DNA of 64,000 nt from Candidatus Gastranaerophilales bacterium (lineage in GTDB: Bacteria > Cyanobacteriota > Vampirovibrionia > Gastranaerophilales > Gastranaerophilaceae). The DNA is taken from contig CALUXX010000003.1 in the NCBI GenBank assembly GCA_944324845.1, forward strand, positions 1-64,000, written 5' to 3'. Numbering within the stretch: position 1 is the first letter of the stretch; each line of letters opens with the position of its first letter. Positions 27,316 through 55,472 of the stretch are shown one piece after another. Both the position numbers and the translations under genes were made by a program. Under the pieces are notes generated by a model, which was not told the origin of the DNA, made no database searches, and saw only the letters and a list, made by a program, of their open reading frames with translations.

Positions 27316-30300
27316 TTATAAATAAATTTTAAGTACTGCTGTTGTATTTTCGTAAGAACCCACGCTACGAGGTGCTTTCAAGACATTAAGTGTTTGATTA
27401 ACAGTTCTTAACACTATATTATCTATCTGATTTGAGCCACTTGCGGTTACTATTCTTGCATCTCTGAATGTTCCATCTTGGTTGTATGTAATACTTACTC
27501 GCATTTCACTTGCATATGCTTTATCAGATACTGCTAACAAGTCAGTCATCAATGCTGATTTCAAACTTTTTCCTGCTGATTGGAAATATTGTTGGAAATT
27601 CGGATCTGCTGAAACTGTTCCGGGAACCTCCCATGACAATTTTTTAACTTCAACAAATGAGCCTGGTGATGCTGGAGGTGTTGTACCTGCAGTTGAGGCA
27701 AGAGCATTTGTATTATTATCCATTTCAACCACTTGACCTGTCGGCTGAGCTTCTTGCTGTGCAACATTATTATTCATTTCTCCACCATCTTCACTTATTG
27801 GTTGTGGGGTTTCATCTACAGGCCCTTTCAAGAATTTAGAAACTCCAAAACCAAATGCAAATAGCAATACAAATACTACTAATGCACCTACAATGCTTAA
27901 ACCTGCAGCTAGACCGCCTGATGACTTTTGTTTTTGTTGAGTTAATCTTCCAGGATTATTCAATATTGTATTTGTTGCTACTTCTGAATTTCTCTCATAT
28001 AAACTGCTTATTGTATCATCATCTAGCATTGGTTGTTTAACTTCTTGAGCATTTATGTCAATATTAATTTCTCCAGGTTTAAATGTTTTATCACTTATTA
28101 CTGTTGAATTTGTTTTTGCATTATAAACAGGTGTTGCCGGTGAATGTTCTATTATTGAATCTTCAGTATTTTCTTCTGCTTGAACAGTTGGTTCCACATC
28201 AGCCAATGTGTCATAACCATCATCAGTTGTCCAATCTTGTTCTTGCGGTTGCGCAGCGACTTCTGCGGCTAAAGATTCTTCCATAAGATTATCAATATCA
28301 TCATCTTCATTATTGATATCGTTATCTTCAGCACTTTCTGATATTTCTATAGGTTCATTTTCAACCGTATTCTCTACTTGTGTATTATTAGCTTCTTGTA
28401 TAGGATTTTCTTCCTCACTATCAGATTCTTCAATCACTAAATCTTCCATAAAATCTTCTGTTGGAATAGTATCTTCAATTTCTGTATTTTTATCTTCCCC
28501 AAGTGAAACATCTTCTGTACTTGCAGTATCGTATAGAATATCTGAAGATTTAAATGCAGAACCATCAACTAAATCATCTGTATAATCAGTTTCTCCAATA
28601 TTTACAGAACCTCCGATTAAAGTTTCTGCAACATCTAAATCTAACAATTCATCAGGGTTAATTTCTTCTTCAGGGCCCCAATTCATATTATCTAATGGTG
28701 ATGTTCCATCTTCGTTAATTGTATATGAATTCAAGTCAGGGAGTTCCATAGTTTCTGTTTCAACTTGTTGAAGATCTAATTCTTCAATGTTTGCAGCAGG
28801 TTTAGTCGGAGAATCGACATCTTTTATTGCTCCTAACTCAACAATTCCTGATTCATCTTCCACATATTCTTCTCGTTCAACTGTTTCAATACTATTCATA
28901 TCAACAACTTCATGAACAATAGTTTCCTGCTTTTCACGCTCTACTACAGTAAGCTCAAACATATCTTTAGGCTTATCTGTTAATCCTTGCGCTTCTGCCA
29001 TCATATTTGCTTGTCTTTTAGCATCTGAAAGACCCCCAATAAAAGACATATGATCATCTGATGTTGACATTGAATTAACATCAGCATGATAATTGTCATT
29101 ATTTTGAGGTTTATTTATAGGCTGAGCATGACCTTTTTGAATTCCTGCAGAAATATCTTCAACTGAGCCGCCTGCAACTGAAGTCATTTTTATTGCGTTA
29201 TCAGATACAGCTTCTGAAACTCCTATTTTATTTTCTTCAGGTTTGTTTTTATCTATTGCTGCTATTGCATTGTCTAAAAGCGTATCGACAGACATTTCCT
29301 TCATTGGAATAGGTTTTGAATAATCATTCATAGATATAATAGGAGTCTGTACATTGTTATTTTCAAAACTTACAATATTTTCGTCTTTTGAAACATTATC
29401 ACTTGGCTCTTCTTGAACTTGTTCAGGCTCTATAGTTTCTACATCAGAAATTTCAATATCTTCATCTAGTGATAATTCCTCATCAATATCACCTAACATC
29501 AAATCATCTTCCAACATTGGTTCTTCTGAATTTTCTGCCTCAGATGATGGTGCGATTGCATCTTCTGCTGTTGATATTTCTTCTGTTGGTTCTTCTTTAA
29601 TATCTTCAACTTGTTCAACTTCTTCGGTTTCAGTTTCTTCGGTTCCTGCTTTTTCTTCTTCAGGTTGTGAAATTTCTTCTGCTGATTCTTCAACGTCTGA
29701 AGTTTCTAGCGTATCAATATCTGATACTTCCATATCTTCATCTAGTAACAATTCATCATCAATATCACCCAGCATTAAATCATCTTCCACTAACATTGGT
29801 TCTTCTGAATTTTCTGCCTCAGATGATGGCGCGATTGCGTCTTCTTCTGTTGGTTCTTCTTTGATATCTTCAACTTGTTCAACTTCTTCGGTTTCTGTTT
29901 CTTCTGCTTCTACTTTTTCTTCTTCAGCTTGCGAAATTTCTTCTGCTGATTCTTCAACATCTGAAGTTTCTAGTGTATCGATATCTGACACTTCCAGATC
30001 TTCATCTAGTGACAATTCATCATCAATATCGCCTAACATCAAATCATCTTCCAACATTGGTTCTTCTGAATTTTCTGCCTCAGGCGATGGAGCTGTTGCA
30101 TCTTCTTCTGTTGGTTCTTCTTTAATATCTTCAACTTGTTCAACTTCTTCGGTTTCTGTTTCTTCAGCTTCTGCTTTTTCTTCTTCAGGTTGTGAAATTT
30201 CTTCTGCTGATTCTTCAACGTCTGAAGTTTCTAGGGTATCGATATCTGATACTTCCATATCTTCATCTAGTGATAATTCATCATCAATATCACCTAGTGC

Positions 30301-31446
30301 TAATTCTTCTTCTGCCTGTTCAACATCTTCTTGCTTTTCATCTTCTTCATTTGATTCTTGTTCAGAAGTTTCTTCTTCGGTTTGCGATTCTGCTTTTTCT
30401 TCTTGTTCTGATTCTTCTAAATTCTTTTCGTCTTGAGCTTGCGGCTCAGTTTCTTTTTCAGGATCATACATTTCCAAAGTTGGAGTTATTTTTTCTTCTT
30501 GAACTTCTTCAACTTCTGCTGTTGGCTCTTCTACCGGAGCAGCCTCAAATACATCAGATAATTTTGCTGATGTTTCTACAACTTCTTTTACTTCCTCTAC
30601 ACTTTCTGTAACAGTATCAAAAACTTCTGCGGCTTCTGCTGTTTTTTCTGTTATTGCAGCTTCAATACCTTCTTTTAAAATTTCTTCCGTTGTTAGAGCA
30701 GCAATACCCGGAACTGCTTTTGATGCTTGTTCTTTTATATCTATTCTTTCTTGTAAAACTGTTGCTACTTGATTAGATAGAACTTCAAAATTATCAAATT
30801 CTGAAACACTATCTCTTAGCATTGAGTCTGTAAGCATCAATCTATACAATTCTTTACGTTCTGCATTATTTAAGTTATGATCAGAAAGACCAACAGATAA
30901 CGCCCTGCCTTTTAAGAAATCTTTTGCATCTAATCTTTGATCTTTGATAGTTTTATATTTATTTAATGTCTTAAATAAAGTATCAGGAGTAGAAAGGTGT
31001 TCTTTTGGGAAGAAATAATATTCATTGTTGGCACATTTTTTATTTACTTGAGAAGGTTTAAAATATCCGATTAATTCGGCATCTTTAAGATTTTTAGCAA
31101 GTTTTAAGACTATGTAGATATCAGGAGTAATATCAAGTTCAAAATGAGATTTTGGAATAAATATTTTGTCTTCATCAAAAATGGCACGAACATCTAAATG
31201 AACATTCGGTAATAATACATCTGCAATATCAACATCTTCAAGAACTTTTGAAATTGAATGCATTGAAACAATATCTTCTGTTTCATAACCATTATCAGCA
31301 AGATATCTGATAAACAATTCAGCACCTAAAACGTTTATGTATGCACGATTTCTGGTTTCAGCATTAACAAAACGTCTGGACATAAAATCTGCCTCAATAT
31401 AATCATTCTTATCTATATTTAACACTAAAGTCTGTAACTCTGCCAT
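27316..31446 (-). CDS. DUF1822-like protein with acidic repeats, one TM helix and TonB-type C-terminus
   Basis: This 1376-residue envelope-spanning protein begins at an ATG preceded by GGGAGG. Residues about 1-170 resemble the cyanobacterial DUF1822 domain (RNRAYINVLGAELFIRYL; YIVLKLAKNLKDAELIGYF). Residues about 240-1180 are very acidic and Glu/Ser-rich, including three near-repeats of about 90 residues between about 380 and 670 (LMLGDIDDELSLDED and EDIKEEPTEED units). One membrane helix lies near 1190-1215 (AAGLSIVGALVVFVLLFAFG). The last 100 residues form a TonB C-terminal-like domain (MRVSITYNQDGTFRDARIV). The predicted topology is N-inside with the C-terminus in the periplasm. The sigma-like and STAND genes follow in the same operon, so it may relay envelope signals; that is inference. 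Confidence 0.8.
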   Translation of the reverse strand: MAELQTLVLNIDKNDYIEADFMSRRFVNAETRNRAYINVLGAELFIRYLADNGYETEDIVSMHSISKVLEDVDIADVLLPNVHLDVRAIFDEDKIFIPKSHFELDITPDIYIVLKLAKNLKDAELIGYFKPSQVNKKCANNEYYFFPKEHLSTPDTLFKTLNKYKTIKDQRLDAKDFLKGRALSVGLSDHNLNNAERKELYRLMLTDSMLRDSVSEFDNFEVLSNQVATVLQERIDIKEQASKAVPGIAALTTEEILKEGIEAAITEKTAEAAEVFDTVTESVEEVKEVVETSAKLSDVFEAAPVEEPTAEVEEVQEEKITPTLEMYDPEKETEPQAQDEKNLEESEQEEKAESQTEEETSEQESNEEDEKQEDVEQAEEELALGDIDDELSLDEDMEVSDIDTLETSDVEESAEEISQPEEEKAEAEETETEEVEQVEDIKEEPTEEDATAPSPEAENSEEPMLEDDLMLGDIDDELSLDEDLEVSDIDTLETSDVEESAEEISQAEEEKVEAEETETEEVEQVEDIKEEPTEEDAIAPSSEAENSEEPMLVEDDLMLGDIDDELLLDEDMEVSDIDTLETSDVEESAEEISQPEEEKAGTEETETEEVEQVEDIKEEPTEEISTAEDAIAPSSEAENSEEPMLEDDLMLGDIDEELSLDEDIEISDVETIEPEQVQEEPSDNVSKDENIVSFENNNVQTPIISMNDYSKPIPMKEMSVDTLLDNAIAAIDKNKPEENKIGVSEAVSDNAIKMTSVAGGSVEDISAGIQKGHAQPINKPQNNDNYHADVNSMSTSDDHMSFIGGLSDAKRQANMMAEAQGLTDKPKDMFELTVVEREKQETIVHEVVDMNSIETVEREEYVEDESGIVELGAIKDVDSPTKPAANIEELDLQQVETETMELPDLNSYTINEDGTSPLDNMNWGPEEEINPDELLDLDVAETLIGGSVNIGETDYTDDLVDGSAFKSSDILYDTASTEDVSLGEDKNTEIEDTIPTEDFMEDLVIEESDSEEENPIQEANNTQVENTVENEPIEISESAEDNDINNEDDDIDNLMEESLAAEVAAQPQEQDWTTDDGYDTLADVEPTVQAEENTEDSIIEHSPATPVYNAKTNSTVISDKTFKPGEINIDINAQEVKQPMLDDDTISSLYERNSEVATNTILNNPGRLTQQKQKSSGGLAAGLSIVGALVVFVLLFAFGFGVSKFLKGPVDETPQPISEDGGEMNNNVAQQEAQPTGQVVEMDNNTNALASTAGTTPPASPGSFVEVKKLSWEVPGTVSADPNFQQYFQSAGKSLKSALMTDLLAVSDKAYASEMRVSITYNQDGTFRDARIVTASGSNQIDNIVLRTVNQTLNVLKAPRSVGSYENTTAVLKIYL
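29440..30300 (-). repeat. ~270-bp near-identical coding repeats, acidic region
   Basis: Three units and part of a fourth recur with landmarks near 29467, 29734, 30006 and 30267 (spacing about 261-272 bases). Each encodes a GDIDDELSLDED block, a SDIDTLETSDVEESAEE block and a run of Glu-rich codons. DNA identity between units is high, suggesting recent expansion. Confidence 0.85.
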
Positions 31447-31616
31447 TTTTATATTTCCTCCCTCTCCAATTATATAGATTACAATTCATTCAAAAATATT
31501 CCATATTTTATGTAAAGTTTTGTAACAATATATTGAAAAATTTTTATAAAAAGACAAAAATAGAATGTCAGGTGTTTTATATCCTATGTGGTAGAAGTGT
31601 TAAGGAGGTTTTTCCT

Positions 31617-32009
31617 ATGATGGTAAATTCAATATCCGGTGTTAGATTTTGCGGACCTGCAGATACAGCAGCTGCTGCAGCCAAACCTGAAGGTTCAGGT
31701 TTTCTTGATCGTCCTGGAGCATTTGCTAAACCGGCTGAAAATAAACCAGCTCAAGTTGATGTTGCACCTAAAAAGAAAAGTTCTTTTGGTAAAAAACTTT
31801 TAACTACTGTTGGTGTCTTAGTTGCTGTTGCTGCAGCACTAGTTGCCGGTAACAAAGCTAAAGTTTTGAATGTTCTAACTGATGCTGAAAAAGCTAATGC
31901 TGGTTGGTTCAAAAAAGCAGTTAACTATGTTGCCGTTGCCGGTGAATGGCTTGCTAAAAATACTTATGATCCTATTGCTAAGTTATTTAGCAAAAAACCA
32001 ACAGCCTAG
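31617..32009 (+). CDS. Small membrane protein with VRFCG N-terminal motif
   Basis: This protein of 130 residues is unknown. The start is set by AAGGAGG at 31602-31608, eight bases before ATG 31617; a longer frame reaches 31533 but has no ribosome site. Residues 4-13 (NSISGVRFCG) match the short N-terminal motif seen in other proteins here. An Ala/Pro/Lys-rich stretch follows (to about 55), then a membrane helix (LLTTVGVLVAVAAALVAG, about 62-79), and a C-terminal amphipathic part (GWFKKAVNYVAVAGEWLAKN). It is divergent from the DUF1822 gene and ends in a strong terminator. Secreted-and-anchored or inner-membrane placement are both possible. Confidence 0.7.
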   Translation: MMVNSISGVRFCGPADTAAAAAKPEGSGFLDRPGAFAKPAENKPAQVDVAPKKKSSFGKKLLTTVGVLVAVAAALVAGNKAKVLNVLTDAEKANAGWFKKAVNYVAVAGEWLAKNTYDPIAKLFSKKPTA

Positions 32010-37739: not shown

Positions 37740-40700
37740 ATGTCATTTGATGTTGATAAGTTCGGTAAAAAGTCAGGAATTGAATTAAATACTCTTAATG
37801 CAGGAATGAAAAAAACTGACATAGAAGAGAAAAACAAAGTTGGGAAATCTATTTTTGATGCCATCGACACAGATGGTAACGGTGTTATTGATGAAAAAGA
37901 AATAAGTATGTTCAGAAAAGAAATTGATTCTGACAACGATAACACAATTTCAAAAAAAGAAGCGAAAAGATTTCTTAAAGATAACGAACTAAAAGATGTC
38001 GATAAAAAAGAAGTATTGAAATTTCTTGCCGAAATGAACAATGACACAAAAGACGTAAATGAAGTAAAAGTTATTGAACAAGACGGAAAGAAAATTGTTC
38101 AAGTTAGTTATAAAGACGGTTCTTATGACCTAATCAACGATGACGAATCATATTCACATACCACAACAGACGAAAATGGCAACCAAATTACAGAGGAATA
38201 CAATTCAAATAAAACACTGGAAAGAAAAACAACACAAACTCCGAATAACAATACCACAGTAACGGAATATGAACAAGACGGCCAAACAATAAAACAAAAA
38301 ACCACAACAACATCACAAACAGGCGAAACAACAATAATTAATTACGAAAATGGAAAACCTGTATCAAAAGATGTAAAAAAAGGTGTTGCAACAACGCACT
38401 ATGAAATAGATGAAGCAGGTAACGAACAAAAGAAATCCCAAGTAATCAATGACGGAGATAGTGAAAAACAAAAAGTCACAACTTATGAAACAAATGAAGA
38501 TGGAACAATAACAGCAACTACAACAGATGCACTTAACCCAAATAAAAAAACAGTAAAAACTATTGTCAAAAATGGCGATAGTGAAACTGTAGCAAAAGAA
38601 GTTATAACAGATGGAGATACCACAATAGAAAGAACATACACCGAAAAAGGTATCCATGAAGTTACAACAACACCAAACGGAAAAACTGAAACAGACTACA
38701 ACAAAGAAAATAATAGAATAAGCCAGAAAAAAACAGTTGATGGCAAAGAATACACAGTAGAATATGATGGAAACGGCAATACAAAAGTAATTTTACAAAA
38801 CGGAGAAAGCGTTGATGCTTTAGCGAAAAAATTTGGAACAACAAAAGAAAAAGTTCTTGAAGCAAATGGCGGAAAAATAAGAGGCTGGGCAGGCGATGAA
38901 GTTGTTGTACCTGGGGAACTTGAAGCAGATGACAAGCGTTTACAAGGCAGACAAACAGCAGAAGAAGCAAAAGCCGCATATAAAGTTGTTGCAGAAGAAA
39001 TTGAAAGAGTAAATAAAGAAGCCTCAGAAAGAAAAACAATCACATTTACAGAAAAGAAACATAAAACTTTTGAAGAGCTAGCTAGAGGCTTATTCAAAAA
39101 CGAAGGCGTTGAAAACCCAACCAAAAGAGAATTAGAAAAACGTATTAAACAACTAAAAGAAGCAAATCCTGATGTAAAAGACGGAGAATTAATTGGCAAG
39201 CGAATAAAAGCACCAGTAGATAAAGAAGTACACAACAGAATTGCCCAAAAAGAAAAAGAAGCAAAACAAAAAATTGAAGAAAAGAAAAAAGCACAAGAAA
39301 ATACAAAACTCCAAAAAGAATCAGCAAAACAAATAACAGAAGAACTAATAAAAGCAACAAAAGGCTGGAATGATGAAGAAGCAATAAAAACAGCTCTAAA
39401 TAAAATAGACAATCCTGAAGAATTAAAAGAAGTTGAAAGATTATTAGCTGCACAAGGCTATAAAGCAGACCAATACTATTCAGCATTAGAAAAATTCATG
39501 TCAAAAGAAATGAGCGGATCAAAAATGTATGACAAATCATTTGATGACATGGAAGAAATCGTTCAAAAATGGATATCAAACGGTGCATTAACAGGAGAAG
39601 ATGCAATCAATGCCCAAGCACGTCTTGCAGCAAGACTAATTATAGATGGTTGTGACGGATTAGGAACAGATGTTGACGAAACAAAAGAAGGTATAAAATA
39701 CATAAAATCACCAACAACAACCGGAGATACAGCAACAGACAGAGCAAATGCCAAAAAGGTTTATGATAAAGTAAATGAAATTATCAAAAACCATAGCAGT
39801 TTCGGTGCAAAATTTAAAGACTTGAAAGATTACCTATCAGGCGATTTATGGAATAGTGAAATCAAATACTTAGATGGTATTCTTGCAGAAAACAATGCCC
39901 TACAAGGAGAAGAAAAAGCAAAAGCAGTAAAAGACTTGGTACAAGAAGCAGTAGAATATGCAGGAACAGATATCGAATACCTAAAACAAGCAATAAAAGC
40001 TATTGATTCCCCGGAAGATAGAGCCGCAATAGAAAAAGAATTAAAAGAATATTGTGAGAAAAAAGGTATTAAACCGCAAATCGAAGGACAAAGTTACCTT
40101 CAAGCAATCTTATACGATGAATGCGATACATTCTTAGGCGTTTCAACAGATCATAAAGAAATCAGAAAATTTAACGAAATGCTTATAAAACAAGGAGCTT
40201 ATACACCTGAAGAAGCAACTAAATTAAGAGCAGAACAAGCAGCCATACAAATTATAGAAGGTGATTTTGACGAAATTCAAGATGCCGTAAAACAAATAAA
40301 AGATCCTGAAGTTCTTGCACAATTAAACAATTTACTAAAAACTAAAAACTTCAAAGATATAGAAACCCTTATAACAGAAAAAGGATATTCACAAACTCAA
40401 AAAGATGTAATAATGGCAGAACTTGCAAGTAATAAATTACTTGATAGTAATAAAGCTGCCGAAATCGCAACAAGATTATTACAAAACCCTGACTTTGACA
40501 CAAGAGCAATGGGTTTTAAAGCAATCACAACAGGTGAAATCGCAAACATTGTTTCTGAAGCACTTAAAGCAAAAGGCCAAAACCTAGCCGCAATAACCGA
40601 ACAATTCAACAAAGAAAAAGCAGAAAACAAAGAAAAAGCAGCATTCTGGGATAATATAGCAATGGCAATGGGAGGCTTCACTCCATTAGGCTATATCGCA

Positions 40701-43700
40701 GAACATATTTCTGATGAATACAATGAAAATACAGAAACCTCTAACAATTTATACGTAGAAAATCCAAAACCGATAGAATTAACACAAGAACAACAAGCAG
40801 CCTATGATATGACTGTAAAAACATTTGAAGAACAATTAAATCAAATGAAAAAAGACTATCAAGAAGCACTAGACAGTCAAGGTGTAGTATCAGGAGCACT
40901 AAACGCATTCTGTTCAGTATATAACATCGGAACAACAAGAGATGATATCGAAGCAAGAATAAAACAGGATGAAGAAACCCTAAAATTATTAAAACTTGCC
41001 GCAGATGGCAAACTTGCAAAAGTTGAAAACGGCAAAACAACAGCCGTAACATTTGAAGAAGTATTCAAAGAAAGAGCCTCAGAATTTATAACAGCAAATG
41101 GTTCTTCAATCTCAGCAATAAAAAACAAGAAAAATCCAAAAGAAGTAACCGAATTTAGTGTCGAGAAAGTAGAAAAAGTTGCTAAAAAAGCACAAACCAT
41201 AGTTGCAATGGATTACGCAAAAGATAATATTGCTATATGCTGGAACGAATTAAATAAAGGTCTAAACTCAAAGGATAATAAAGAATTGTCTGTCGCAATA
41301 TGCGATACAATGGAAAAACTTTCCCAAATGTCAGGTCAAACAATGACCTTAGATGCTTTTGGTTACAAAGTATCAAACGGAGTAATCGTAGATGCATCAG
41401 GAAATCCTGTAAGTGCAGATAAACTAAGCGAAATATCAGCACAACTAAAAAAAGGATTATCAGAAATTTCAGAATATTTACTTGGCACCTCAATTCCAGC
41501 AGATGCAACAGACGCAGATCTTAAAGACATTTTGAATGATGCCTACGAAAATAAAATGGAAGCCTTCAAACAAGAATATAGAGAAGCTTTCGGACAACAA
41601 GCAACCGATGAAATGATTGAAAACTACATGAAAACAATCAACTACAGTAAAATGGCAGTAAACTTCGGATTGCTAATCGGAGCAACAATAGCAGCACCAT
41701 TTACAGGCGGTGGAAGTTTAGCCGTTTTTGCAGCAACTGCAGGTGTTTCATTTGGAATGAACGCCTTAGAAAAATCAACTGATGCTGACGGCTATACGAA
41801 TAGTGAATGGACAAGTGATGCAGAACAAGCACTATGGGATGGCGCATTAACAGCAATCGGTTTCAAAGTTGGTCAAATGGCTGATATGGCAGCAACAGGC
41901 GGAGAGGGATTCTTAAAAGCAATGAGAGAATCTAACAAATGGATTGCCCAAATGACAAAAAATCTTCCACCAGAAAAATTAGCAAAAGTTGAACAAACAA
42001 TGGCTAAATTATCACAATTAACTAATACCAAAGCTGCAAAAATTTCACAAGAAATGATGGCTAAAAATAATGCCTTAGCACTTAAATACCTACCAAATGC
42101 AAATGTTGAAACTATTAAAAAAGTATCTGCTTGCATCTCAAGAGTAGAAGCAACAGGAGTTGAAGTAACAAGTGATACAATACAATCACTTATCCAAACA
42201 TACTGTCAAGATGGAGAATTTAATGCAGAAGGCTTCACTCAAGCACTTATTATGTCTGTAATCGGTAACGCAGCAGGTCATACCTTCTCTGCTATTGGCG
42301 ATATCAAACAACAAATTTCAACTCAAACAAAAGTTGATGCCCTTGGACAATTAAAAGGTGCAGATGGGAAAAACATATTCTCACCTGAAGAAATTAATGA
42401 TTTAGTAAAAAACAATCCTGGTTTCCAAAACATAACAAAAAAACAATTAAAATCATTACAAGATAAAGTTAATATTTTGGGACAACTAAAAGATGCTAAT
42501 GGAAACTTATTATATACACCAACAGAAATAAATAAATTTATAAAAAACAATCCACAATTTATGAATTATACCCTAGATCAAATTAAAGATTTAAATAATA
42601 AAATCAACTATCTTAGCACATTAAAAGCACCTAATGGAAAAGAATTATTTCCAGCCGATGTATTAAAATACATCCTTGATAATAATAGTGCTAATTTGAA
42701 CAATCTGCCAACAGAAACATTAAAAATTCTAACGCAAAAATCATATGCTGATTATGGTCTAATTACGATTCTAGGCAAAATTGAATCTGCTGATGATATA
42801 AAGGTTATAGATAAATTAATAAGTATAGAAAACAAGACAAATTGCAAATTTGAATTTGCAGGCTTAGAAGATATTTTAGACTCAAAACACAGTTCACAAC
42901 TTAACGATTTTGAAGCTTTTGTTGATGAAATTATAAATCTTGACCATACAAAAGGACAACTAATAGCAAATCCTAATATTGCAGATAACATAACCACAAT
43001 ACTTCACAACGTTCAAACAGAAACTCAAAAACAAGCATTTGATAAACTAAAAGTTCTTGTAGATAATGAAATTGTATCATATTCTCATATCGCAGAACGA
43101 GTTAAATCAATTAAAACAGAACAAGACTTAACTGTTCTTGACAAATTACTTGAAAGAGCACAAAAACCTAAAAATATAGATGTAATAAAAGATAATTTAA
43201 AAGAAATAGAAGCAATATACCGAAAGCAAAGCGCTAATAGTATAATCTTATCAAAAGAAGATATGGATTTTTCAAAAGAAATCCTTAATCTCCTTGCGAA
43301 TAATGATAAAGTAAAATTAAGCAGAATAGCAAATCATTTAACACCAGCAGTAAATCTAAAATTTAATGATCTGGATAAAAACTTAATAATTAAATATGCA
43401 ACAAGTGGCGATATAGAAAAACTGGAATTTGCTCTAAGCACTAAAAAGGAATTTTACCTACAAGATACACCGCTAATGCGTTATATTAATAAAACAGGAA
43501 ATGTTCCATATGATGCTGCAGAACTACAAAACATAAAAACTAATTCTCAACTACAAGAAAATGCTTTTGAATTACTCTTAAACACAAACAAAGATAGCCG
43601 ATTTGAAGCATCAGCTTTCCAAGACATTATATATAACATAAAAACTCAACAAGACTTAGATAACTTACAAAAACTTTTAAGTATGGAAGTTAACGGTAAA

Positions 43701-46700
43701 CCACTTGATGGTTATACTATTATTGAAAACCTAAAAGCAAAAAATATTGATGCTGATATTATTGCAAGACAAAATCCGGCAAAAGGAATTCCATACAAAG
43801 GAGATGACGTTAAAAATCTAGTAAATGAATACGGAATTTCTTCAGGTAATGCCTATGGCTTACTAAGGTTAAGAAGCGCAAATGCAAAACGTTATAACAA
43901 AATTATTGATAGCGGGCTTTTAGACCTAATCAAACAAGGCAAGATAGATGAAAGTATCTTAAAAAACATTGATGAAAATACATTCCTTTCAAATAGAACT
44001 CTAAAAGATATTAGAAAAATTGCAAATGGAGAGTCATTAATAACAACATTAAGAAATCCATCTGAACTATCAAACATATCAAAATATGTTGAAAATGGTG
44101 ATGTATGTGAATTAAACGGAAAATTATTTGTAAATGATAACGGTAAAGCGGTTGAAATAAAATTATCAAGACAAAAATTTGAAGAATTATTCCCACCATT
44201 ATCAAGAGTATCATTTGAACAAGACGGACTTGGCGACTGCTGGCTGGTAAGTACATTAGATAATTTAATGGATATAGCAGGCGGTAGAGTTGCACTATAT
44301 AAATTATTTGAACAACAAGGCAATGATATCCTTATAAAATTCCCTGGCTCAAATAATGCAATTAAGTTTCCAAATAGCAAAGCATTAAAAACTCCAACCA
44401 GAAAACAACTTGCTTCCCCTGCACAAAAAGCAAAAGGAAGATCAAATGCAGAAGGTACTGCGGAAGGAATTTTAATCCTTGAACAGGCATTTGCTGTTCA
44501 TAGATTAAAAGAAGGTGCAAGAGCCTATGATGTAAACAGTTCAATGACAGATATAAGCCAATTCACTGATATTGACGACTTAATGAAACGTATCAAAGGT
44601 GGATGGCAAGAAGAAGCCCTAAATGAAATTTTTGGAACAAGAATTACAATTGACCATTATGGAACAGATATCGCAAATAGACAAAAAATGAAAGATTTAA
44701 TCAAACAATATGCAAATGATGATCAAGTTTTATTATATTTTGCGACAAGATCTGAAGATTCACAGGTCGAACAACTACTTTCTGACAAATATGATATATA
44801 TTCAAATCACGCATACGCAATAAAAGGGTATGACGAAAAAACAGGTATGGTATATATAACAAACCCATGGCATACCTCTGTTGTTACAGAAGTTCCACTT
44901 TATGAGTTAACAAAATATTTGGTTGACTGTTCATTCGCTAAATTAGATGGCATAAAACCAAAACCAACCTTTTCTCAAACACCTACAAATGTAAGTTCAC
45001 CGATAAAAGGAGCTTCATCAAATACTTCTGATAATAAATCACTTAACGAAGCAATGGTGTCTTCAAAAGCATTAAAAGATAGTGACTTAGAAAAAATAAG
45101 AAAATATGCAAAATTAATCAAATCAAAAACACCTCAACAAGTTGAAGATGTATTTGAATCACTTGCATTGAGAATTAAAAATAATGAAATCCCTTCAAGT
45201 GAAATGTTTAATCAAGTAATAAACGATGTTGCAACAAAATCAGGAATTGATGCAGGAATTTTAGCAAAAGATATAAGAAATCTTATGAAAAACATAGACG
45301 GCTGGGATAAACTTCTTGACCCATTCAAAAAAAGTGCCGATATAAATGCAAATAACCCACGTCTTGCAAAAGATCTTGACAAATTTAAAACGAAATATGA
45401 TTTACAATCAGACACAAGAAAAGCAGAACTACAGGCAGAAGCAGAACTTAAAGCAAAACAAGATGCTGAACTAAAAGCTCAACAGGAAGCTGAGTTAAAA
45501 GCTCGAGAAGAAGCAGCACTCAAAGCAAAAGAAGAAGCCGAAATCAGAGCACAACAAGAAGCTCAACAAAATCAACAAATTCTTGAAACATATAAAGATA
45601 AATATCCTGAAGTAATTAATGAAAAGAATTTCCGTGATGATACCACACCAGCAAAATTAATTACTCTAATGGAACAATATAATTTAAACATGGATTATAG
45701 TAATTTCAATCCTCAAGAAATTTATCAAGAAATATCACGAGCAGGAATTACTAATGATGCAGATATGGATATTGCATTCAATATGATTAAAGAACGTTTC
45801 CACAGCGATATTATTTCAACAGAAGCGCACGTAAAAACAATGAATGCGAAATATCATTTCACAAGCAAAAAATCAGTTCTTCAAGCTGATAATATAATTG
45901 AAAAACTCAAAGCAAAACAAGCAAATGGAGAACCAATATCAGAAGATGATATTGAAAATATGATTGCTTCACTTGATGATTATGATGTTCGAGATGGCGC
46001 AAGAATTAAACAAATGATTATGGATGATTCTGCAATTAAAGCAGAAATAAATCCTTATGAAAATATATATAAAAACCCTAAATTTAATAATATTGCAAAA
46101 GAAGATTTAGATGATGCAGTAAAAATACTGACATATTTAAAAAATGAAGTCCAAAACGGCAACCCGCCGACACTTGAAATGGTTCGATATTATATAGATC
46201 ATTTGGCAACAATTAAACAAGCAAATGGTAATTCACTATCAACCGAAGCCGTTTGGGTACTACAAGATACCCTAAGATATGATACAGATCTTGCTCCAAA
46301 ATGTAAGGGTTTTGTTGAAAATATCATTCAAGGCGGATTTGAACCTGAACCATCTCAAACCTTCAAAAATTTATCAGCAAATTCTAAATACACTGATTTT
46401 GCTGATGAAACAAGATTAACTCAAGTTGCAAATATCATTGATGAACTAAAAGCTGATGCCGCAAATGGAACTCCGATTACTGAAGCTCTTGTTCAATCTA
46501 AACTTGATGCACTTAATAATCAACTTGAAAAACAAGGTAGTTTTGTTTCTACTGAACAATACTGGATACTACAAGATGCACTAAGATATGATGCAGAACT
46601 TGCTCCAAAATGCAAGGGGTTTGTTGAAAATATCATTCAAGGCGGATTTGAACCTGAACCATCTCAAACCTTCAAAAATTTATCAGCAAATTCTAAATAC

Positions 46701-48074
46701 ACTGATTTTGCTGATGAAACAAGATTAACTCAAGTTGCAAATATCATTGATGAACTAAAAGCTGATGCCGCAAATGGAACTCCGATTACTGAAGCTCTTG
46801 TTCAATCTAAACTTGATGCACTTAATAATCAACTTGAAAAACAAGGTAGTTTTGTTTCTACTGAACAATACTGGATACTACAAGATGCACTAAGATATGA
46901 TGCAGAACTTGCTCCAAAATGCAAGGGGTTTGTTGAAAATATCATTCAAGGCGGATTTGAACCTGAACCATCTCAAACCTTCAAAAATTTATTAGCAAAC
47001 TCTAAATATACAAACCTTACTGATGAAACAAGAATAGCTCAAGTTGCTAATATTATTGATGATCTTAAAGCTGATGCGGCAAACGGAACACCAATTACCG
47101 AAGAACTTGTTCGTGCAAAAATTGATGCTTTAGACGATGAACTTAGTAAACAAGGAAGTTTTGTTTCTACTGACCAATATTATATATTACAAGATGCACT
47201 AAGATATGATAATGAACTTGCTCCAAAATGCAAAAACTTTGTCGAAAATATCATTCAAGGTGGATTTGAACCTGAACATTCTCAAATTTTGAGAAACACA
47301 TCCGCAACACAAGAAGTTACATCTAAAAAATACCAAAGCAGAGCTGCTGAAGCTTCACCTTCAACAGAAACAACTACCCCTGCAAAATCTTCTAAGGGGT
47401 TATTTTCAAGATTTAAAAAATTCACAAAATCTATCTTTGAAAAATCTGAAACAAATATATTAACATCAACAAAAGTTTCAGATAAAATGTCTGCAATAAG
47501 CAATATTACAGATATGTATGGGAAACCAAAATTTTCTGAAACAGAACTAGAAAATATCAACAATGCACTTATTCAATATGAAAAATTAGGACATCAAATA
47601 AAAGATCTTCCACTCAATACAATATACGCAGCGGCAAATGTACCGGGAGTGACAACAGCAGATCAACTGACAAGCCTACTTGTATCTTGTACTGATACTG
47701 ATAAAAAAGAAATACTTAATAGTTTAATAAGAACAAAAGATATAACAATAAATAATGGAATTTTGAACCTTCCAAAAGTTGCAGGCTCACCTGATTTTTA
47801 TTTCATTACTACCTTAATAGAATTTGTCCAAGATACACAAAACTATACAGCAAAAGTTCAACTATTAGAAAAGATTATGGATCCAAATGGTCCAATTCGT
47901 CCAACACTGCAAAAACTTGATAATAAAACTGCATACGAAATTGCAGGAATTCTAAATATGGCACAATCAGAACAAGATGTAACAGATATTCTAAGTTATA
48001 TCAAGAAATTCCAACAAGCAAACGGAGAAGATACAAAATTAAGCCTAAATAATTTATATGACTATAACTTATAA
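37740..48074 (+). CDS. Giant EF-hand/LysM-like/calpain-type protease-repeat protein
   Basis: About 3444 residues; numbers here count from the in-frame ATG at 37719, but ATG 37740 is preferred because AAAGGA lies six bases upstream. Two canonical EF-hand loops lie at 50-61 (DTDGNGVIDEKE) and 70-81 (DSDNDNTISKKE). A beta-rich Thr/Asp/Gly region (about 110-350) is followed by LysM-like segments near 355-400 and 440-500. A long helical section has a hydrophobic patch near 1320 and three 44-residue repeats near 1540-1670. A calpain-type core (about 2110-2410) has Gln2168, Cys2174 (QDGLGDCW, with calpain's six-residue Gln-Cys spacing), His2364 (NHAYAI) and Asn2382 (NPW). An Ala/Glu/Lys coiled coil lies at 2567-2625 and 103-residue repeats at about 2780-3190. 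There is no clear signal peptide. Confidence 0.88.
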   Translation: MSFDVDKFGKKSGIELNTLNAGMKKTDIEEKNKVGKSIFDAIDTDGNGVIDEKEISMFRKEIDSDNDNTISKKEAKRFLKDNELKDVDKKEVLKFLAEMNNDTKDVNEVKVIEQDGKKIVQVSYKDGSYDLINDDESYSHTTTDENGNQITEEYNSNKTLERKTTQTPNNNTTVTEYEQDGQTIKQKTTTTSQTGETTIINYENGKPVSKDVKKGVATTHYEIDEAGNEQKKSQVINDGDSEKQKVTTYETNEDGTITATTTDALNPNKKTVKTIVKNGDSETVAKEVITDGDTTIERTYTEKGIHEVTTTPNGKTETDYNKENNRISQKKTVDGKEYTVEYDGNGNTKVILQNGESVDALAKKFGTTKEKVLEANGGKIRGWAGDEVVVPGELEADDKRLQGRQTAEEAKAAYKVVAEEIERVNKEASERKTITFTEKKHKTFEELARGLFKNEGVENPTKRELEKRIKQLKEANPDVKDGELIGKRIKAPVDKEVHNRIAQKEKEAKQKIEEKKKAQENTKLQKESAKQITEELIKATKGWNDEEAIKTALNKIDNPEELKEVERLLAAQGYKADQYYSALEKFMSKEMSGSKMYDKSFDDMEEIVQKWISNGALTGEDAINAQARLAARLIIDGCDGLGTDVDETKEGIKYIKSPTTTGDTATDRANAKKVYDKVNEIIKNHSSFGAKFKDLKDYLSGDLWNSEIKYLDGILAENNALQGEEKAKAVKDLVQEAVEYAGTDIEYLKQAIKAIDSPEDRAAIEKELKEYCEKKGIKPQIEGQSYLQAILYDECDTFLGVSTDHKEIRKFNEMLIKQGAYTPEEATKLRAEQAAIQIIEGDFDEIQDAVKQIKDPEVLAQLNNLLKTKNFKDIETLITEKGYSQTQKDVIMAELASNKLLDSNKAAEIATRLLQNPDFDTRAMGFKAITTGEIANIVSEALKAKGQNLAAITEQFNKEKAENKEKAAFWDNIAMAMGGFTPLGYIAEHISDEYNENTETSNNLYVENPKPIELTQEQQAAYDMTVKTFEEQLNQMKKDYQEALDSQGVVSGALNAFCSVYNIGTTRDDIEARIKQDEETLKLLKLAADGKLAKVENGKTTAVTFEEVFKERASEFITANGSSISAIKNKKNPKEVTEFSVEKVEKVAKKAQTIVAMDYAKDNIAICWNELNKGLNSKDNKELSVAICDTMEKLSQMSGQTMTLDAFGYKVSNGVIVDASGNPVSADKLSEISAQLKKGLSEISEYLLGTSIPADATDADLKDILNDAYENKMEAFKQEYREAFGQQATDEMIENYMKTINYSKMAVNFGLLIGATIAAPFTGGGSLAVFAATAGVSFGMNALEKSTDADGYTNSEWTSDAEQALWDGALTAIGFKVGQMADMAATGGEGFLKAMRESNKWIAQMTKNLPPEKLAKVEQTMAKLSQLTNTKAAKISQEMMAKNNALALKYLPNANVETIKKVSACISRVEATGVEVTSDTIQSLIQTYCQDGEFNAEGFTQALIMSVIGNAAGHTFSAIGDIKQQISTQTKVDALGQLKGADGKNIFSPEEINDLVKNNPGFQNITKKQLKSLQDKVNILGQLKDANGNLLYTPTEINKFIKNNPQFMNYTLDQIKDLNNKINYLSTLKAPNGKELFPADVLKYILDNNSANLNNLPTETLKILTQKSYADYGLITILGKIESADDIKVIDKLISIENKTNCKFEFAGLEDILDSKHSSQLNDFEAFVDEIINLDHTKGQLIANPNIADNITTILHNVQTETQKQAFDKLKVLVDNEIVSYSHIAERVKSIKTEQDLTVLDKLLERAQKPKNIDVIKDNLKEIEAIYRKQSANSIILSKEDMDFSKEILNLLANNDKVKLSRIANHLTPAVNLKFNDLDKNLIIKYATSGDIEKLEFALSTKKEFYLQDTPLMRYINKTGNVPYDAAELQNIKTNSQLQENAFELLLNTNKDSRFEASAFQDIIYNIKTQQDLDNLQKLLSMEVNGKPLDGYTIIENLKAKNIDADIIARQNPAKGIPYKGDDVKNLVNEYGISSGNAYGLLRLRSANAKRYNKIIDSGLLDLIKQGKIDESILKNIDENTFLSNRTLKDIRKIANGESLITTLRNPSELSNISKYVENGDVCELNGKLFVNDNGKAVEIKLSRQKFEELFPPLSRVSFEQDGLGDCWLVSTLDNLMDIAGGRVALYKLFEQQGNDILIKFPGSNNAIKFPNSKALKTPTRKQLASPAQKAKGRSNAEGTAEGILILEQAFAVHRLKEGARAYDVNSSMTDISQFTDIDDLMKRIKGGWQEEALNEIFGTRITIDHYGTDIANRQKMKDLIKQYANDDQVLLYFATRSEDSQVEQLLSDKYDIYSNHAYAIKGYDEKTGMVYITNPWHTSVVTEVPLYELTKYLVDCSFAKLDGIKPKPTFSQTPTNVSSPIKGASSNTSDNKSLNEAMVSSKALKDSDLEKIRKYAKLIKSKTPQQVEDVFESLALRIKNNEIPSSEMFNQVINDVATKSGIDAGILAKDIRNLMKNIDGWDKLLDPFKKSADINANNPRLAKDLDKFKTKYDLQSDTRKAELQAEAELKAKQDAELKAQQEAELKAREEAALKAKEEAEIRAQQEAQQNQQILETYKDKYPEVINEKNFRDDTTPAKLITLMEQYNLNMDYSNFNPQEIYQEISRAGITNDADMDIAFNMIKERFHSDIISTEAHVKTMNAKYHFTSKKSVLQADNIIEKLKAKQANGEPISEDDIENMIASLDDYDVRDGARIKQMIMDDSAIKAEINPYENIYKNPKFNNIAKEDLDDAVKILTYLKNEVQNGNPPTLEMVRYYIDHLATIKQANGNSLSTEAVWVLQDTLRYDTDLAPKCKGFVENIIQGGFEPEPSQTFKNLSANSKYTDFADETRLTQVANIIDELKADAANGTPITEALVQSKLDALNNQLEKQGSFVSTEQYWILQDALRYDAELAPKCKGFVENIIQGGFEPEPSQTFKNLSANSKYTDFADETRLTQVANIIDELKADAANGTPITEALVQSKLDALNNQLEKQGSFVSTEQYWILQDALRYDAELAPKCKGFVENIIQGGFEPEPSQTFKNLLANSKYTNLTDETRIAQVANIIDDLKADAANGTPITEELVRAKIDALDDELSKQGSFVSTDQYYILQDALRYDNELAPKCKNFVENIIQGGFEPEHSQILRNTSATQEVTSKKYQSRAAEASPSTETTTPAKSSKGLFSRFKKFTKSIFEKSETNILTSTKVSDKMSAISNITDMYGKPKFSETELENINNALIQYEKLGHQIKDLPLNTIYAAANVPGVTTADQLTSLLVSCTDTDKKEILNSLIRTKDITINNGILNLPKVAGSPDFYFITTLIEFVQDTQNYTAKVQLLEKIMDPNGPIRPTLQKLDNKTAYEIAGILNMAQSEQDVTDILSYIKKFQQANGEDTKLSLNNLYDYNL
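42330..42740 (+). repeat. Three ~132-bp repeats inside the giant gene
   Basis: Units of 42-45 codons begin near 42331, 42466 and 42595. Each encodes a pattern of L-G-Q-L-K-D-A-N-G, then P-x-E-I-N/L, K-N-N-P, and an amphipathic helix. They are diverged at DNA level. Confidence 0.65.
46350..46967 (+). repeat. Two identical 309-bp tandem repeats (103 codons each)
   Basis: Copies at 46350-46658 and 46659-46967 read identically over their full length. A diverged third unit follows at 46968-47276 and a degenerate one precedes near 46050. Each unit encodes SQTFKNLSANSKYTDF, a helical stretch, and KGFVENIIQGGFEPEP. Zero divergence implies a recent duplication or repeat collapse in assembly. Confidence 0.9.
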
Positions 48075-48175: not shown

Positions 48176-48520
48176 ATGGCAATAAAAATGAACAGCGGAA
48201 ATCAAGATTATTTTAATAGATTACAAAAAAAAGTAGAACAAGCACAATTAGAAAATAAACCTTATGCTCATTATATTCAAAAACAAATTGAATTGTTAGA
48301 AAATGCGCACGATGAATTTGTAGCAAGAGCACAAAAAGAAGGTTATGATTTGAACAACACTAATATTGCTGAAACTGAAATTAAACAATTTTCTGCAATG
48401 CGTGCACTTGCTCAAAAAGCAGGTTTGCCTGTTGAAAAATATGATGAACTGATTAAAAAAGTTCAAATTCGTATATTCGGCGAAGAAAATTATGAAAATC
48501 TTTTTGGTAAAAATTCATAA
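48176..48520 (+). CDS. Small helical hypothetical protein
   Basis: This 114-residue, all-helical, charged protein has no recognised family. It has a good ribosome site (AAAAGAGG) and its own promoter. The pattern is a coiled-coil-like N-terminal half (YFNRLQKKVEQAQLENKPYA, then IQKQIELLENAHDEFVAR), a helix with IKQFSAMRALAQKAG, and a C-terminal IRIFGEENYENLFGKNS. There is no signal peptide or membrane segment. A bidirectional terminator separates it from the next minus-strand gene. It follows the giant protein gene by 101 bases and could be its partner; this is a guess. Confidence 0.65.
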   Translation: MAIKMNSGNQDYFNRLQKKVEQAQLENKPYAHYIQKQIELLENAHDEFVARAQKEGYDLNNTNIAETEIKQFSAMRALAQKAGLPVEKYDELIKKVQIRIFGEENYENLFGKNS

Positions 48521-48542
48521 TTTTTTAAATAATTTTATTCAG

Positions 48543-48579
48543 AACAAAAACCGCAGATATAATATCTGCGGTTTTTGTT
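48543..48579. terminator. Bidirectional terminator
   Basis: ACAAAAACCGCAGATA pairs with TATCTGCGGTTTTTGT around a three-base loop, between convergent genes. Confidence 0.92.
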
Positions 48580-48593
48580 TATCTGATTTTTTA

Positions 48594-51253: not shown

Positions 51254-52600
51254 ATGGATGATTTCAATAAAGAAAGTCTTGAATTAATAAAACAAAACGT
51301 TAGAGAAAAACTTGCAAATACAGAATTATACACTTTTAAAGGCACTGTATCAAAACTATTAGGACTAACAGTAGAAGTTAAATTACCTGGCTTAAAAATA
51401 GGTGATTTATGTTATATCGAAAACTATGCAGGAGAACTTAAACCGGCAGAAGTTCAGGCATTTAAAGGTGAAGTTGCACAATTATCATTATTACTTGACG
51501 GTAATGGAATTGGGCAAGGAAGTTTAGTAACAACAACCAGACGCCCAATCACAATTCCTGTAGGTGATTTTTTATTAGGGCGACTAATTGACCCATTAGG
51601 AAACCCGATTGATGGGAAACCATTAGATACAACAAATGCACTTTGGAAAGAAATTGAAGGACCTCCACCCGGACCGTTTGAAAGACCGATTATAACAGAA
51701 CAATTCTCGACAGGTGTTAGAGCAATAGATGGTTGTATGACAATGGGTTGCGGACAACGTTTGGGCTTATTTGCAGGATCTGGAGTTGGTAAAAGTACAC
51801 TTTTGGGTATGATTGCAAGAAACTCAGATGCTGATGTAAACGTAGTTGCGCTAATCGGAGAACGTGGTCGTGAAGTTAAAGAATTTGTTGAAGATGCACT
51901 TGGTGAATATGGTATGTCAAAATCAGTTTTGGTATGTTCAACAGGTGATCAACCTCCATTGATTAGACAAAAAGCACTTCTTACCGCAACAGCAGTTTGC
52001 GAATATTTTAGAGATCAAGGGAAAAAAGTTTTCCTTATGACAGATACTGTTACACGTTGTGCAATGGCGGGACGTGAAGTTGGCTTATCGCTTGGAGAAC
52101 CGCCTACAATGAAAGGTTATCCGCCATCCATATTTTCTTGGTTACAAAAAGTTTTAGAACGTGCAGGAAATAGCCCGAGAGGTTCTATTACAGCTTTATA
52201 CACCGTACTTATGGAAGGTGATGATATTTCTGACCCTATCGTTGATATTGTGCGTGGTATTGTTGACGGACACATATTCTTATCAAGAAAAGTTGCAGAA
52301 TCAAACCACTATCCTGCTATTGATGTTTTAGGAAGTATTTCCCGTTTGATGAGTGCTATCGCTTCACCTGAACATAAAAAAGCTGCAGGTAAATTAAGAG
52401 CAATTATGTCACTATATAGAGAAAACAAAGATTTGATTGACGTTGGTATGTATCAGCCGGGTTCTAACCCTAAACTTGATACTGCGATTGAAATGATGCC
52501 TAAAATTAATGCCTTCTTACAACAAAGAACCGATGATAGCGTAACTATGGAAGGTACAATTAATCAATTAATTGAGATGATGCAAAATGTAGAAATTTAA
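51254..52600 (+). CDS. Type III secretion/flagellar export ATPase (SctN/FliI family)
   Basis: This 448-residue hexameric ATPase unfolds substrates at a type III export gate. The N-terminal beta domain (about 25-95) is followed by the F1-beta-like core. Family motifs are present: Walker A GSGVGKST at 175-182, VALIGERGREVKEFVEDALG at about 198-217 with catalytic Glu203, LMTDTVTRCAMAGREVGL (Walker B), GEPPTMKGYPPS, and DGHIFLSRKVAESNHYPAIDVLGSISR. The core is intact, so it should be active. There is no ribosome site and the promoter -10 ends seven bases upstream, suggesting a leaderless message. No rod, ring, hook, needle or stator gene is visible nearby. A soluble SctV/FlhA domain is encoded 1.4 kb away on the opposite strand. 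Flagellar or non-flagellar origin cannot be decided here. Confidence 0.95.
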   Translation: MDDFNKESLELIKQNVREKLANTELYTFKGTVSKLLGLTVEVKLPGLKIGDLCYIENYAGELKPAEVQAFKGEVAQLSLLLDGNGIGQGSLVTTTRRPITIPVGDFLLGRLIDPLGNPIDGKPLDTTNALWKEIEGPPPGPFERPIITEQFSTGVRAIDGCMTMGCGQRLGLFAGSGVGKSTLLGMIARNSDADVNVVALIGERGREVKEFVEDALGEYGMSKSVLVCSTGDQPPLIRQKALLTATAVCEYFRDQGKKVFLMTDTVTRCAMAGREVGLSLGEPPTMKGYPPSIFSWLQKVLERAGNSPRGSITALYTVLMEGDDISDPIVDIVRGIVDGHIFLSRKVAESNHYPAIDVLGSISRLMSAIASPEHKKAAGKLRAIMSLYRENKDLIDVGMYQPGSNPKLDTAIEMMPKINAFLQQRTDDSVTMEGTINQLIEMMQNVEI

Positions 52601-53987: not shown

Positions 53988-55472
53988 CTAAATTTCTCCA
54001 AGACTTTCCACTCGATACATACAACCTAGTTCTTCATGGGCCAAAACAGTTACATCTTTAATATACAAAGAAAGTAGTGTGAAGAATATTTGTCTGTAAT
54101 CCATCGGAACAACTAAAACTAAATTGTGAATTTTTAATTTTTTCATCTTCTTACTAATTTTATTAGCAAGTTTTTCTGCTAAAGTACCATCTATTTTGAT
54201 AAGACTATCTTCACTTTCATCACATCCTAAAACTATATCTGAATATGTTTTTTCGGATAATTCAAATGCACTTATAGATTCACCATCTTCATTAACATAA
54301 GGTTTGCAAACCTGTCTTGAAAGTGATAAACGAATTTTATTCAAAATATCAGCCTTACCGCCTTCTTCTGCAAAATCATTTATCTTTTCAAAAATATATG
54401 TAATATTTCTAATTGAAACCTTTTCCTTTATTAAACTTGATAAAAGATACTTGATATCTGAATAAGTTAACAAATCAGGAATAATATTTTCTATTAAAAA
54501 CTCATTTTCTTTTTCGACAACTTCTAAATACTTATCTATATCTTCATAATCTAGTAAATCATCAACATATTTCACTGCAACATATTCTAACGCTTTTGAT
54601 ATATATTCAGAAACAGTTAAACCTTTTTGCCAAAAATCTTTTGCTTTATCTTTTTCTATCCATATAACTTTTCTATCAGTAATTTCATCAACTGCATTTA
54701 CAGAATTCTTAATTTTATGTTCAGTATGAAGCTCATCTGCATAAAACATCAAAGAATTTGGAACAACTCCGCCGGTAAAAACTTCCATCCCTCTTATTCT
54801 AATGCTAAATTCACAAGGATTTAAGTTTTCATCATCTTTGAATACAACTTTGGGAATTACGTATCCATATTTTTCTGTTATGTACAGTCTTGATTTCACG
54901 GTTTCTGCAATCAAATCGTCTTCGTAATCCGTATTTCTATCAGAATCCACAAGACCTAAAAGTTCTTCACTCAAATAAATTGTCAACTTTTCTTCATGTA
55001 ACTTGGAATACATTAAATCAGGCGAAGTTGCTTTATTAAGCTGAACTTTTAAATCCTCCAATTCTTTTAACCCTGCTGAAATTTTATCATTTAATTTTTT
55101 TCTTGAAACAGAAGCAGGTGCTTCTCCTTCTATTTCAGCTTTAATTTTATTTATGCTTTCTTTACGAATTCTAATTTTTTCCTGTAAATCGACACACTTT
55201 TCATACTCATTCATTTTAGGTGAAAGCATTTTCTCCATTTGGCTTTTAAAATCAGAAATATTAATTATGTCAGAATCTGAGGAACTGTCAGATTTTACCT
55301 CTCTCATAAATATACAATTCAGTTGAGAACCGGTTTCATCATCTTCTACATCATGCATACTGTACAATTCCCAACCGTTCATTGACATTTCATTCAGCAA
55401 ATTCTGCAAATCCTGTGCTTCGCTTGCTGAACAGGTTTTGATTACATATTCCATTCTATTTTTTCTGAACAT
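53988..55472 (-). CDS. Soluble SctV/FlhA cytoplasmic domain fused to DUF4177-like domain
   Basis: This 494-residue protein has an N-terminal DUF4177-like domain (about 7-58, MEYVIKTCSASEAQ then NGWELYSMHDV) and a coiled-coil linker (about 85-150). About 330 residues then match the cytoplasmic domain of type III export-gate proteins FlhA/SctV: GYVIPKVVFKD, FSIRIRGMEVFTGGVVP, VIWIEKDKAKDFW, VENI-type DLLTYSDIKYLLSSLIKEKV, SIRNITYIFEK, LNKIRLSLSRQVC, and a last VTVLAHEELGCMYRVESLG. All membrane helices of a normal export gate are absent. Its ribosome site AAAGGA overlaps the udp stop codon, so translation is coupled within the bamA-ompH-udp operon. It is convergent with the barrel gene, with two bases between the stops. 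Confidence 0.8.
   Translation of the reverse strand: MFRKNRMEYVIKTCSASEAQDLQNLLNEMSMNGWELYSMHDVEDDETGSQLNCIFMREVKSDSSSDSDIINISDFKSQMEKMLSPKMNEYEKCVDLQEKIRIRKESINKIKAEIEGEAPASVSRKKLNDKISAGLKELEDLKVQLNKATSPDLMYSKLHEEKLTIYLSEELLGLVDSDRNTDYEDDLIAETVKSRLYITEKYGYVIPKVVFKDDENLNPCEFSIRIRGMEVFTGGVVPNSLMFYADELHTEHKIKNSVNAVDEITDRKVIWIEKDKAKDFWQKGLTVSEYISKALEYVAVKYVDDLLDYEDIDKYLEVVEKENEFLIENIIPDLLTYSDIKYLLSSLIKEKVSIRNITYIFEKINDFAEEGGKADILNKIRLSLSRQVCKPYVNEDGESISAFELSEKTYSDIVLGCDESEDSLIKIDGTLAEKLANKISKKMKKLKIHNLVLVVPMDYRQIFFTLLSLYIKDVTVLAHEELGCMYRVESLGEI

What the first reader, a model, noticed from the sequence alone, without database searches (positions are those of the whole stretch)
37740..48074. Giant (about 3444-residue) EF-hand plus calpain-type protease protein
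Seen: two canonical EF-hand loops near the N-terminus, and a calpain-like triad Cys2174, His2364, Asn2382 with the oxyanion Gln exactly six residues before the Cys, as in animal calpains. Bacterial calpain-like proteins are known (family C2), but fusion in one chain with LysM-like segments, a TolA-like coiled coil and a long repeat array is unusual. Inference: a calcium-responsive protease, perhaps exported or surface-attached, with the EF-hands as a sensor remote from the core.
Basis: partly seen in the sequence, partly recalled or inferred. Interest (0 to 1): 0.85.

Follow-up and report, generated by a model that had tools for sequence, protein, structure and literature searches.

The report
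Giant modular calpain-type protease with partner
A gut bacterium of the non-photosynthetic cyanobacteria makes a giant protein that carries a calpain-like protease as one of several swappable payloads on a shared calcium-hand front end, together with a small dedicated partner protein that probably restrains the protease.

Summary
ORF 37740-48074 (3444 aa) has one canonical and one near-canonical EF-hand loop and a calpain-type domain. The model best matches human calpain cores (Z 15.3; next fold 10.1). Cys is kept in all 39 domains read. The genome is a Gastranaerophilales gut bacterium.

The interpretation changes. The EF-hands sit on an N-terminal platform (about residues 1-406) that related giants join to other C-termini (FHA with RamC_N). 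The calpain domain's own calcium positions are not kept. So a calcium-switched protease is not supported.

New: a 114-aa four-helix ORF (48176-48520) follows the giant and ends in a terminator. Its relatives lie directly behind a calpain-type coding sequence at all 16 places found in 40 genomes. Its divergence follows the protease (r 0.90) more than the N-terminus (0.64); non-calpain giants lack it.

Best reading: a modular giant effector or toxin with a dedicated inhibitor/immunity partner, exported by an unknown non-Sec route. A flagellin-less type III export apparatus, kept across the genus, is a candidate. Neither secretion nor activity is shown.

The parts
37740..48074 (+). giant protein, 3444 aa
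   Evidence: open frame; start supported by ribosome-binding-like AAAGGA and aligned N-termini of relatives
37740..38069 (+). N-terminal platform signature with EF-hand pair, residues 1-110; loops at 37866-37901 and 37926-37961
   Evidence: profile A3 finds it in 30 of 40 genomes, 24 of 25 of the genus, often at the start of giants without a calpain domain
38055..38774 (+). Thr/Asn-rich stretch, residues about 106-345
   Evidence: sequence; aligned in relatives with other C-termini
38796..38915 (+). LysM, residues about 353-392
   Evidence: weak here (0.02); 1e-5 to 1e-7 at the same place in relatives
41595..41879 (+). glycine-rich, mildly hydrophobic segment, residues about 1286-1380
   Evidence: shared with giants lacking the calpain domain; hydropathy peak 1305-1330
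44037..44945 (+). calpain-type (C2) protease domain, residues 2100-2402; Cys2167 codon 44238-44240, His2357 44808-44810, Asn2375 44862-44864
   Evidence: dN/dS 0.088 against nearest relative
45437..45587 (+). TolA-like coiled coil, 24-nt repeats
46227..47307 (+). helical repeat array, period 309 nt (103 aa)
48176..48520 (+). partner gene, 114 aa, four-helix model; probable inhibitor/immunity protein
   Evidence: directly behind calpain-type genes at all 16 places found in 40 genomes; model pLDDT 87.6; co-divergence with the protease
48542..48580 (+). terminator-like hairpin closing the two-gene unit
   Evidence: 18 pairs, 1 found against 0.2 expected; none between giant and partner

Best explanation
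The giant is one member of a modular effector- or toxin-like family of Gastranaerophilales. A shared front end (N-terminal signature, EF-hand pair, Thr-rich stretch, LysM, glycine-rich middle) carries exchangeable C-terminal payloads; here the payload is a calpain-type cysteine protease. The next gene encodes a small four-helix protein made with it, which most likely binds and restrains the protease inside the producer, as an immunity protein or dedicated inhibitor. The giant leaves the cell without a Sec signal, by a route not yet known, and cleaves a protein in another cell or at the surface. Shown: the domains, the conserved triad and fold, the modularity, the linkage of the partner gene to the calpain domain. 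Inferred: catalysis, inhibition by the partner, export, target.
For: Calpain fold and conserved triad. Domain at the extreme C-terminus in most relatives. Same N-terminal platform with FHA and RamC_N C-termini in other giants. Partner behind a calpain-type coding sequence at 16 of 16 places in 40 genomes, absent from genomes without one and from giants without the domain. Two calpain domains with two tandem partners in L010. Identity of partner follows the protease (r 0.90) more than the N-terminus (0.64) on the same 12 loci. Proven example of the same gene order in another papain-like clade, Cpe1-Cpi1 (PMC12136450).
Against: No activity, toxicity, binding or secretion was tested. Several calpain classes lack the partner: the 784-aa class, short ones, and L052. 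In L003 and L005 a second calpain domain has no second partner. The nearest relative's giant is broken into several ORFs, by decay or assembly error. No known trafficking domain was found by Pfam. Shared ancestry inflates all correlations.
Confidence: 0.5

Rival explanations
1. The small partner is a secretion or folding chaperone for the giant, in the manner of flagellar and type III export chaperones, and not an inhibitor.
For: Small, all-helical, adjacent gene; the genome holds a type III export apparatus.
Against: It follows the calpain domain and not the N-terminus, where export chaperones usually bind (general knowledge): giants with the same platform but other C-termini lack it, and it occurs with different N-termini.
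Confidence: 0.22
2. The calpain domain is a releasing protease that cuts the giant itself and frees the part after it.
For: In the window protein, L003, L004, L005, L010 and L049 the domain is internal and is followed by repeats or a second enzymatic domain. Internal papain-like domains do this in polymorphic toxins (PMC3482391).
Against: In most relatives nothing follows the domain, and a dedicated partner gene is not needed for self-cleavage.
Confidence: 0.18
3. A cell-envelope housekeeping protease: the LysM and coiled regions hold the protein in the producer's own envelope, where the protease processes surface proteins; the partner is a regulator.
For: LysM and long coiled and repeat regions.
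Against: Patchy distribution (calpain domain in 21 of 40 relatives), broken or truncated copies (L003, L063, L124), swapped C-termini.
Confidence: 0.1

Closest known systems
Bacterial calpains, MEROPS family C2 (Rawlings 2015, PMC4631099)
   Same: Calpain-type core with Cys, His, Asn and Gln; usually the C-terminal domain; usually without a signal peptide; very large forms known.
   Different: Rawlings states that no bacterial homologue has an EF-hand domain; here an EF-hand pair is in the same chain, as part of a platform shared with other giants. No linked partner gene was described in the passages read.
Cpe1-Cpi1 cysteine protease toxin and immunity (PMC12136450)
   Same: Papain-like protease domain at a C-terminus, with a small gene directly downstream whose sequence diverges together with the protease.
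   Different: Another clade of the fold; delivered by type VI or CDI proteins; inhibition shown by experiment. Here the delivery route and the inhibition are unknown.
Polymorphic toxin systems (Zhang 2012, PMC3482391)
   Same: Shared front end, variable C-terminal domains, small downstream gene.
   Different: The front end is none of the trafficking modules listed there, as far as read; the word calpain does not occur in the held text.
Staphopain-staphostatin and calpain-calpastatin (general knowledge)
   Same: A cysteine protease paired with a dedicated protein inhibitor, for staphopain encoded directly downstream.
   Different: Staphostatin is a beta barrel and calpastatin is disordered; this partner is modelled as four helices.

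Membership tests
Calpain family C2 | Sequence similarity to the family | tested here: met
   Pfam C2 1.3e-4, just under the curated cut-off; family profile finds human calpain-9 at 7e-5 with both motifs
Calpain family C2 | Cys, His, Asn (or Asp) and the Gln before the Cys | tested here: met
   kept in 39 of 39 domains for Cys, His wherever covered, Asn or Asp in all but one
Calpain family C2 | Calpain protease-core fold | tested here: met
   model against calpain-3: Z 15.3, rmsd 3.3 over 210 residues; next fold Z 10.1
Calpain family C2 | Proteolytic activity | not testable with these tools
   needs purified protein
Classical calcium-dependent calpain | Calcium-binding residues in the protease core | tested here: not met
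   Ser2158 for Asp96 and Val2381 for Glu292, by spacing from the active-site residues and the alignment; positions
Classical calcium-dependent calpain | EF-hand domain behind the core | tested here: not met
   EF-hands lie about 2100 residues before the core and occur without it in other giants
Polymorphic toxin system | Shared front end with exchangeable C-terminal domains | tested here: met
Polymorphic toxin system | Small gene directly behind, specific to the C-terminal domain | tested here: met
   by position and co-divergence only
Polymorphic toxin system | Known trafficking module | tested here: inconclusive
   none reported by Pfam in the giant; the platform may be an undescribed one
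Polymorphic toxin system | Toxicity relieved by the partner | not testable with these tools
   needs expression in a laboratory strain
Type III secreted effector | Export apparatus in the genome | tested here: met
   FliF, FlhA, FliOPQR, FliI, FliH, FliN-like; no flagellin
Type III secreted effector | Export of this protein by that apparatus | not testable with these tools
   only adjacency to FliI, conserved in one close relative

The most novel reading that the evidence does not exclude
A new delivery class: EF-hand/LysM giant proteins with exchangeable enzymatic C-termini (calpain, FHA with kinase-like domain, EDR1-type peptidase), exported by a flagellin-less type III apparatus that gut Gastranaerophilales keep as a separate system, with the calpain-type payloads neutralised by a new helical inhibitor family.
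Probability: 0.2. Interest if true: 0.88.

Novelty: new variant of a known kind. Interest (0 to 1): 0.62.

Why it matters
If the partner is an inhibitor, this is a calpain-type toxin-and-immunity pair and a bacterial protein inhibitor of a calpain-fold protease, testable with two small proteins. It would also name part of the effector repertoire of a common, mostly uncultured gut lineage, and suggest why non-motile members keep flagellum-like export genes.

Tried and rejected
FliI-like matches near calpain genes in L010 and L064 (30% identity) were first taken as export ATPases; the P-loop GGAGVGKT shows they are ATP synthase beta, so linkage of the giants to FliI is not general. The partner was compared with the PDB by sequence and fold: nothing above the level expected of helical bundles. 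Pfam hits of partner members (DUF4168 3e-4, WHD_MCM8 2e-4) are weak and inconsistent with each other, and I do not rely on them. No relative of the protease domain was found in viral contigs or phages, none of the partner in plasmids, so there is no sign of a phage or plasmid origin. The N-terminal 497 residues hit only themselves in the own genome by plain search. Literature searches found no description of these giants or of type III secretion in this order; the library holds only open-licence papers.

Full report
Observation. ORF 37740-48074 codes for 3444 aa. The start at 37740 is preferred to 37719, because relatives begin with the same MSxxVDKFGKKSG. The triad is Cys2167, His2357, Asn2375, with Gln2161 six residues before the Cys.

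The protease domain. Pfam gives Peptidase_C2 1.3e-4, just under the cut-off. Relatives in Gastranaerophilales genomes are many: 21 of 40 genomes searched hold one, and 9 named loci came from genome contigs, several titled Candidatus Melainabacteria or Gastranaerophilales. All 39 domains that cover the Cys keep it; His is kept wherever covered; Asn is Asn or Asp in all but one. Asp is accepted by active C2 peptidases (PMC4631099). A profile of 14 sequences finds human calpain-9 at 7e-5 with both motifs aligned. The AlphaFold model has calpain cores as its best 23 VIA-align rows, Z 15.3 to 10.3; the first other fold, phytochelatin synthase, has Z 10.1. dN/dS against the nearest relative is 0.088 in the domain and 0.206 in the preceding part. 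This is a calpain-type domain under constraint; activity is not shown.

Calcium. The core positions that bind calcium in calpain-2 (Asp96, Glu292; PMC4631099) are Ser2158 and Val2381 here, by spacing from the active-site residues and the alignment. The EF-hands lie about 2100 residues away and belong to a platform, residues 1 to about 406. That platform is shared with giants lacking the calpain domain: L092, L093, L094, L098 and others. Profile A3 finds it in 30 of 40 genomes. L092, L094 and L098 carry FHA and RamC_N in their C-terminal part. L095 (3045 aa, HD domain) matched only the middle segment and has no platform match, so it is at most a distant member. L049 carries a calpain domain followed by FHA and an EDR1/CTR1-type peptidase. 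The calcium hands are therefore more likely part of delivery or folding than a switch of the protease. Rawlings found no EF-hand in any bacterial calpain, so the combination in one chain is new to that survey.

Where the domain sits. In most relatives it ends within a few residues of the C-terminus. In the window protein, L003, L004, L005, L010 and L049 it is internal, and repeats or a second enzymatic domain follow. The releasing-protease rival rests on this group.

The partner. The next gene, 48176-48520, has no Pfam family. Its relatives lie directly behind calpain-type genes in loci whose other neighbours differ, with gaps mostly of 0 to 61 nt (101 nt in the window). A profile search of 40 genomes gave 17 rows at 16 places in 12 genomes. 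Each lies behind a calpain-type coding sequence, in two cases (L063, L124) a truncated one. L010, with two calpain domains, has two tandem partners. Giants without the domain have none. The more distant L061 and L062 have their own 113-114 aa downstream ORFs, with a doubtful profile match for one (E 0.08). Identity of partner and protease correlates at r 0.82 over 17 loci. On the 12 loci where the N-terminus is also known it is 0.90, against 0.64 for partner and N-terminus; worked out by hand from these values, the partial correlation with the N-terminus given the protease is about -0.14. Partner-bearing domains cluster on the tree (6 changes, shuffled mean 12.1, 0 of 500 as low), but they are not one clade and several calpain classes lack a partner. 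A strong terminator-like hairpin follows the partner, and none lies between the two genes. The model is four helices at pLDDT 87.6, with no informative structural match. I read it as an inhibitor or immunity protein, because it follows the protease and not the N-terminus. Cpe1-Cpi1 (PMC12136450) is a proven case of the same arrangement in another papain-like clade.

Export. No Sec signal is evident by eye; no predictor was available. The window holds a FliI/SctN ATPase 3 kb downstream and a stand-alone FlhA cytosolic domain. Elsewhere the genome has FliN-like, FliO-like, FliP, FliQ, FliR, FliF, FliH and full FlhA, and two short FlgB/FlgC-like rod proteins, but no flagellin. Flagellated families of the same order carry this set as well as a canonical flagellum: mostly two FliP and two FliF each. 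The window genome's FliP is 77% identical to the second FliP of a flagellated relative and 44% to that relative's canonical one. Soo et al. [quoted passage not shown] these data suggest a separate conserved export system. A type I system with its own RTX protein sits beside FliF. Neither route is tied to the giants by evidence, so export is inference. FliI adjacency is conserved only in the nearest relative.

Verdict. The calcium-sensor idea is not supported. The finding becomes a modular giant family with a calpain-type payload and a linked partner gene, with a defined two-protein test.

Noticed in passing
G000:C2 (L107 7623-11450; L136 12474-18077) and window 51254-52600: A flagellin-less type III export gene set (FliF, FliH, FlhA, FliN-like, FliO-like, FliP, FliQ, FliR, FliI, two short rod proteins) is kept across the genus; flagellated families of the order carry it besides a canonical flagellum. 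It looks like a second, separate system and not a flagellar remnant.
   Followed up: partly
window 53988-55472: A stand-alone FlhA cytosolic domain with a different N-terminus and no membrane part, besides the full FlhA elsewhere in the genome.
   Followed up: partly
L003 4368-14141: In the nearest relative the counterpart of the giant is broken into at least three ORFs, with the calpain domain itself conserved; decay or assembly error cannot be told apart here.
   Followed up: no
L136 4609-11865: A complete-looking type I secretion set (OEP, ABC transporter, HlyD) with an RTX-repeat protein, directly before the FliF gene.
   Followed up: no
window 31533-32009; L051 7047-7811: Small proteins begin with a V/I-x-F-x-G-like motif close to the N-terminus (GVRFCG, INFQG), which may be a common tag in this lineage.
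   Followed up: no
window 5305-9393: A 1362-aa ORF gives a weak match to the EF-hand platform profile near its start (E 1.9e-4).
   Followed up: no
window 27316-31446: A 1376-aa, very acidic ORF with long internal repeats and a weak TonB C-terminal match (3.9e-5).
   Followed up: no
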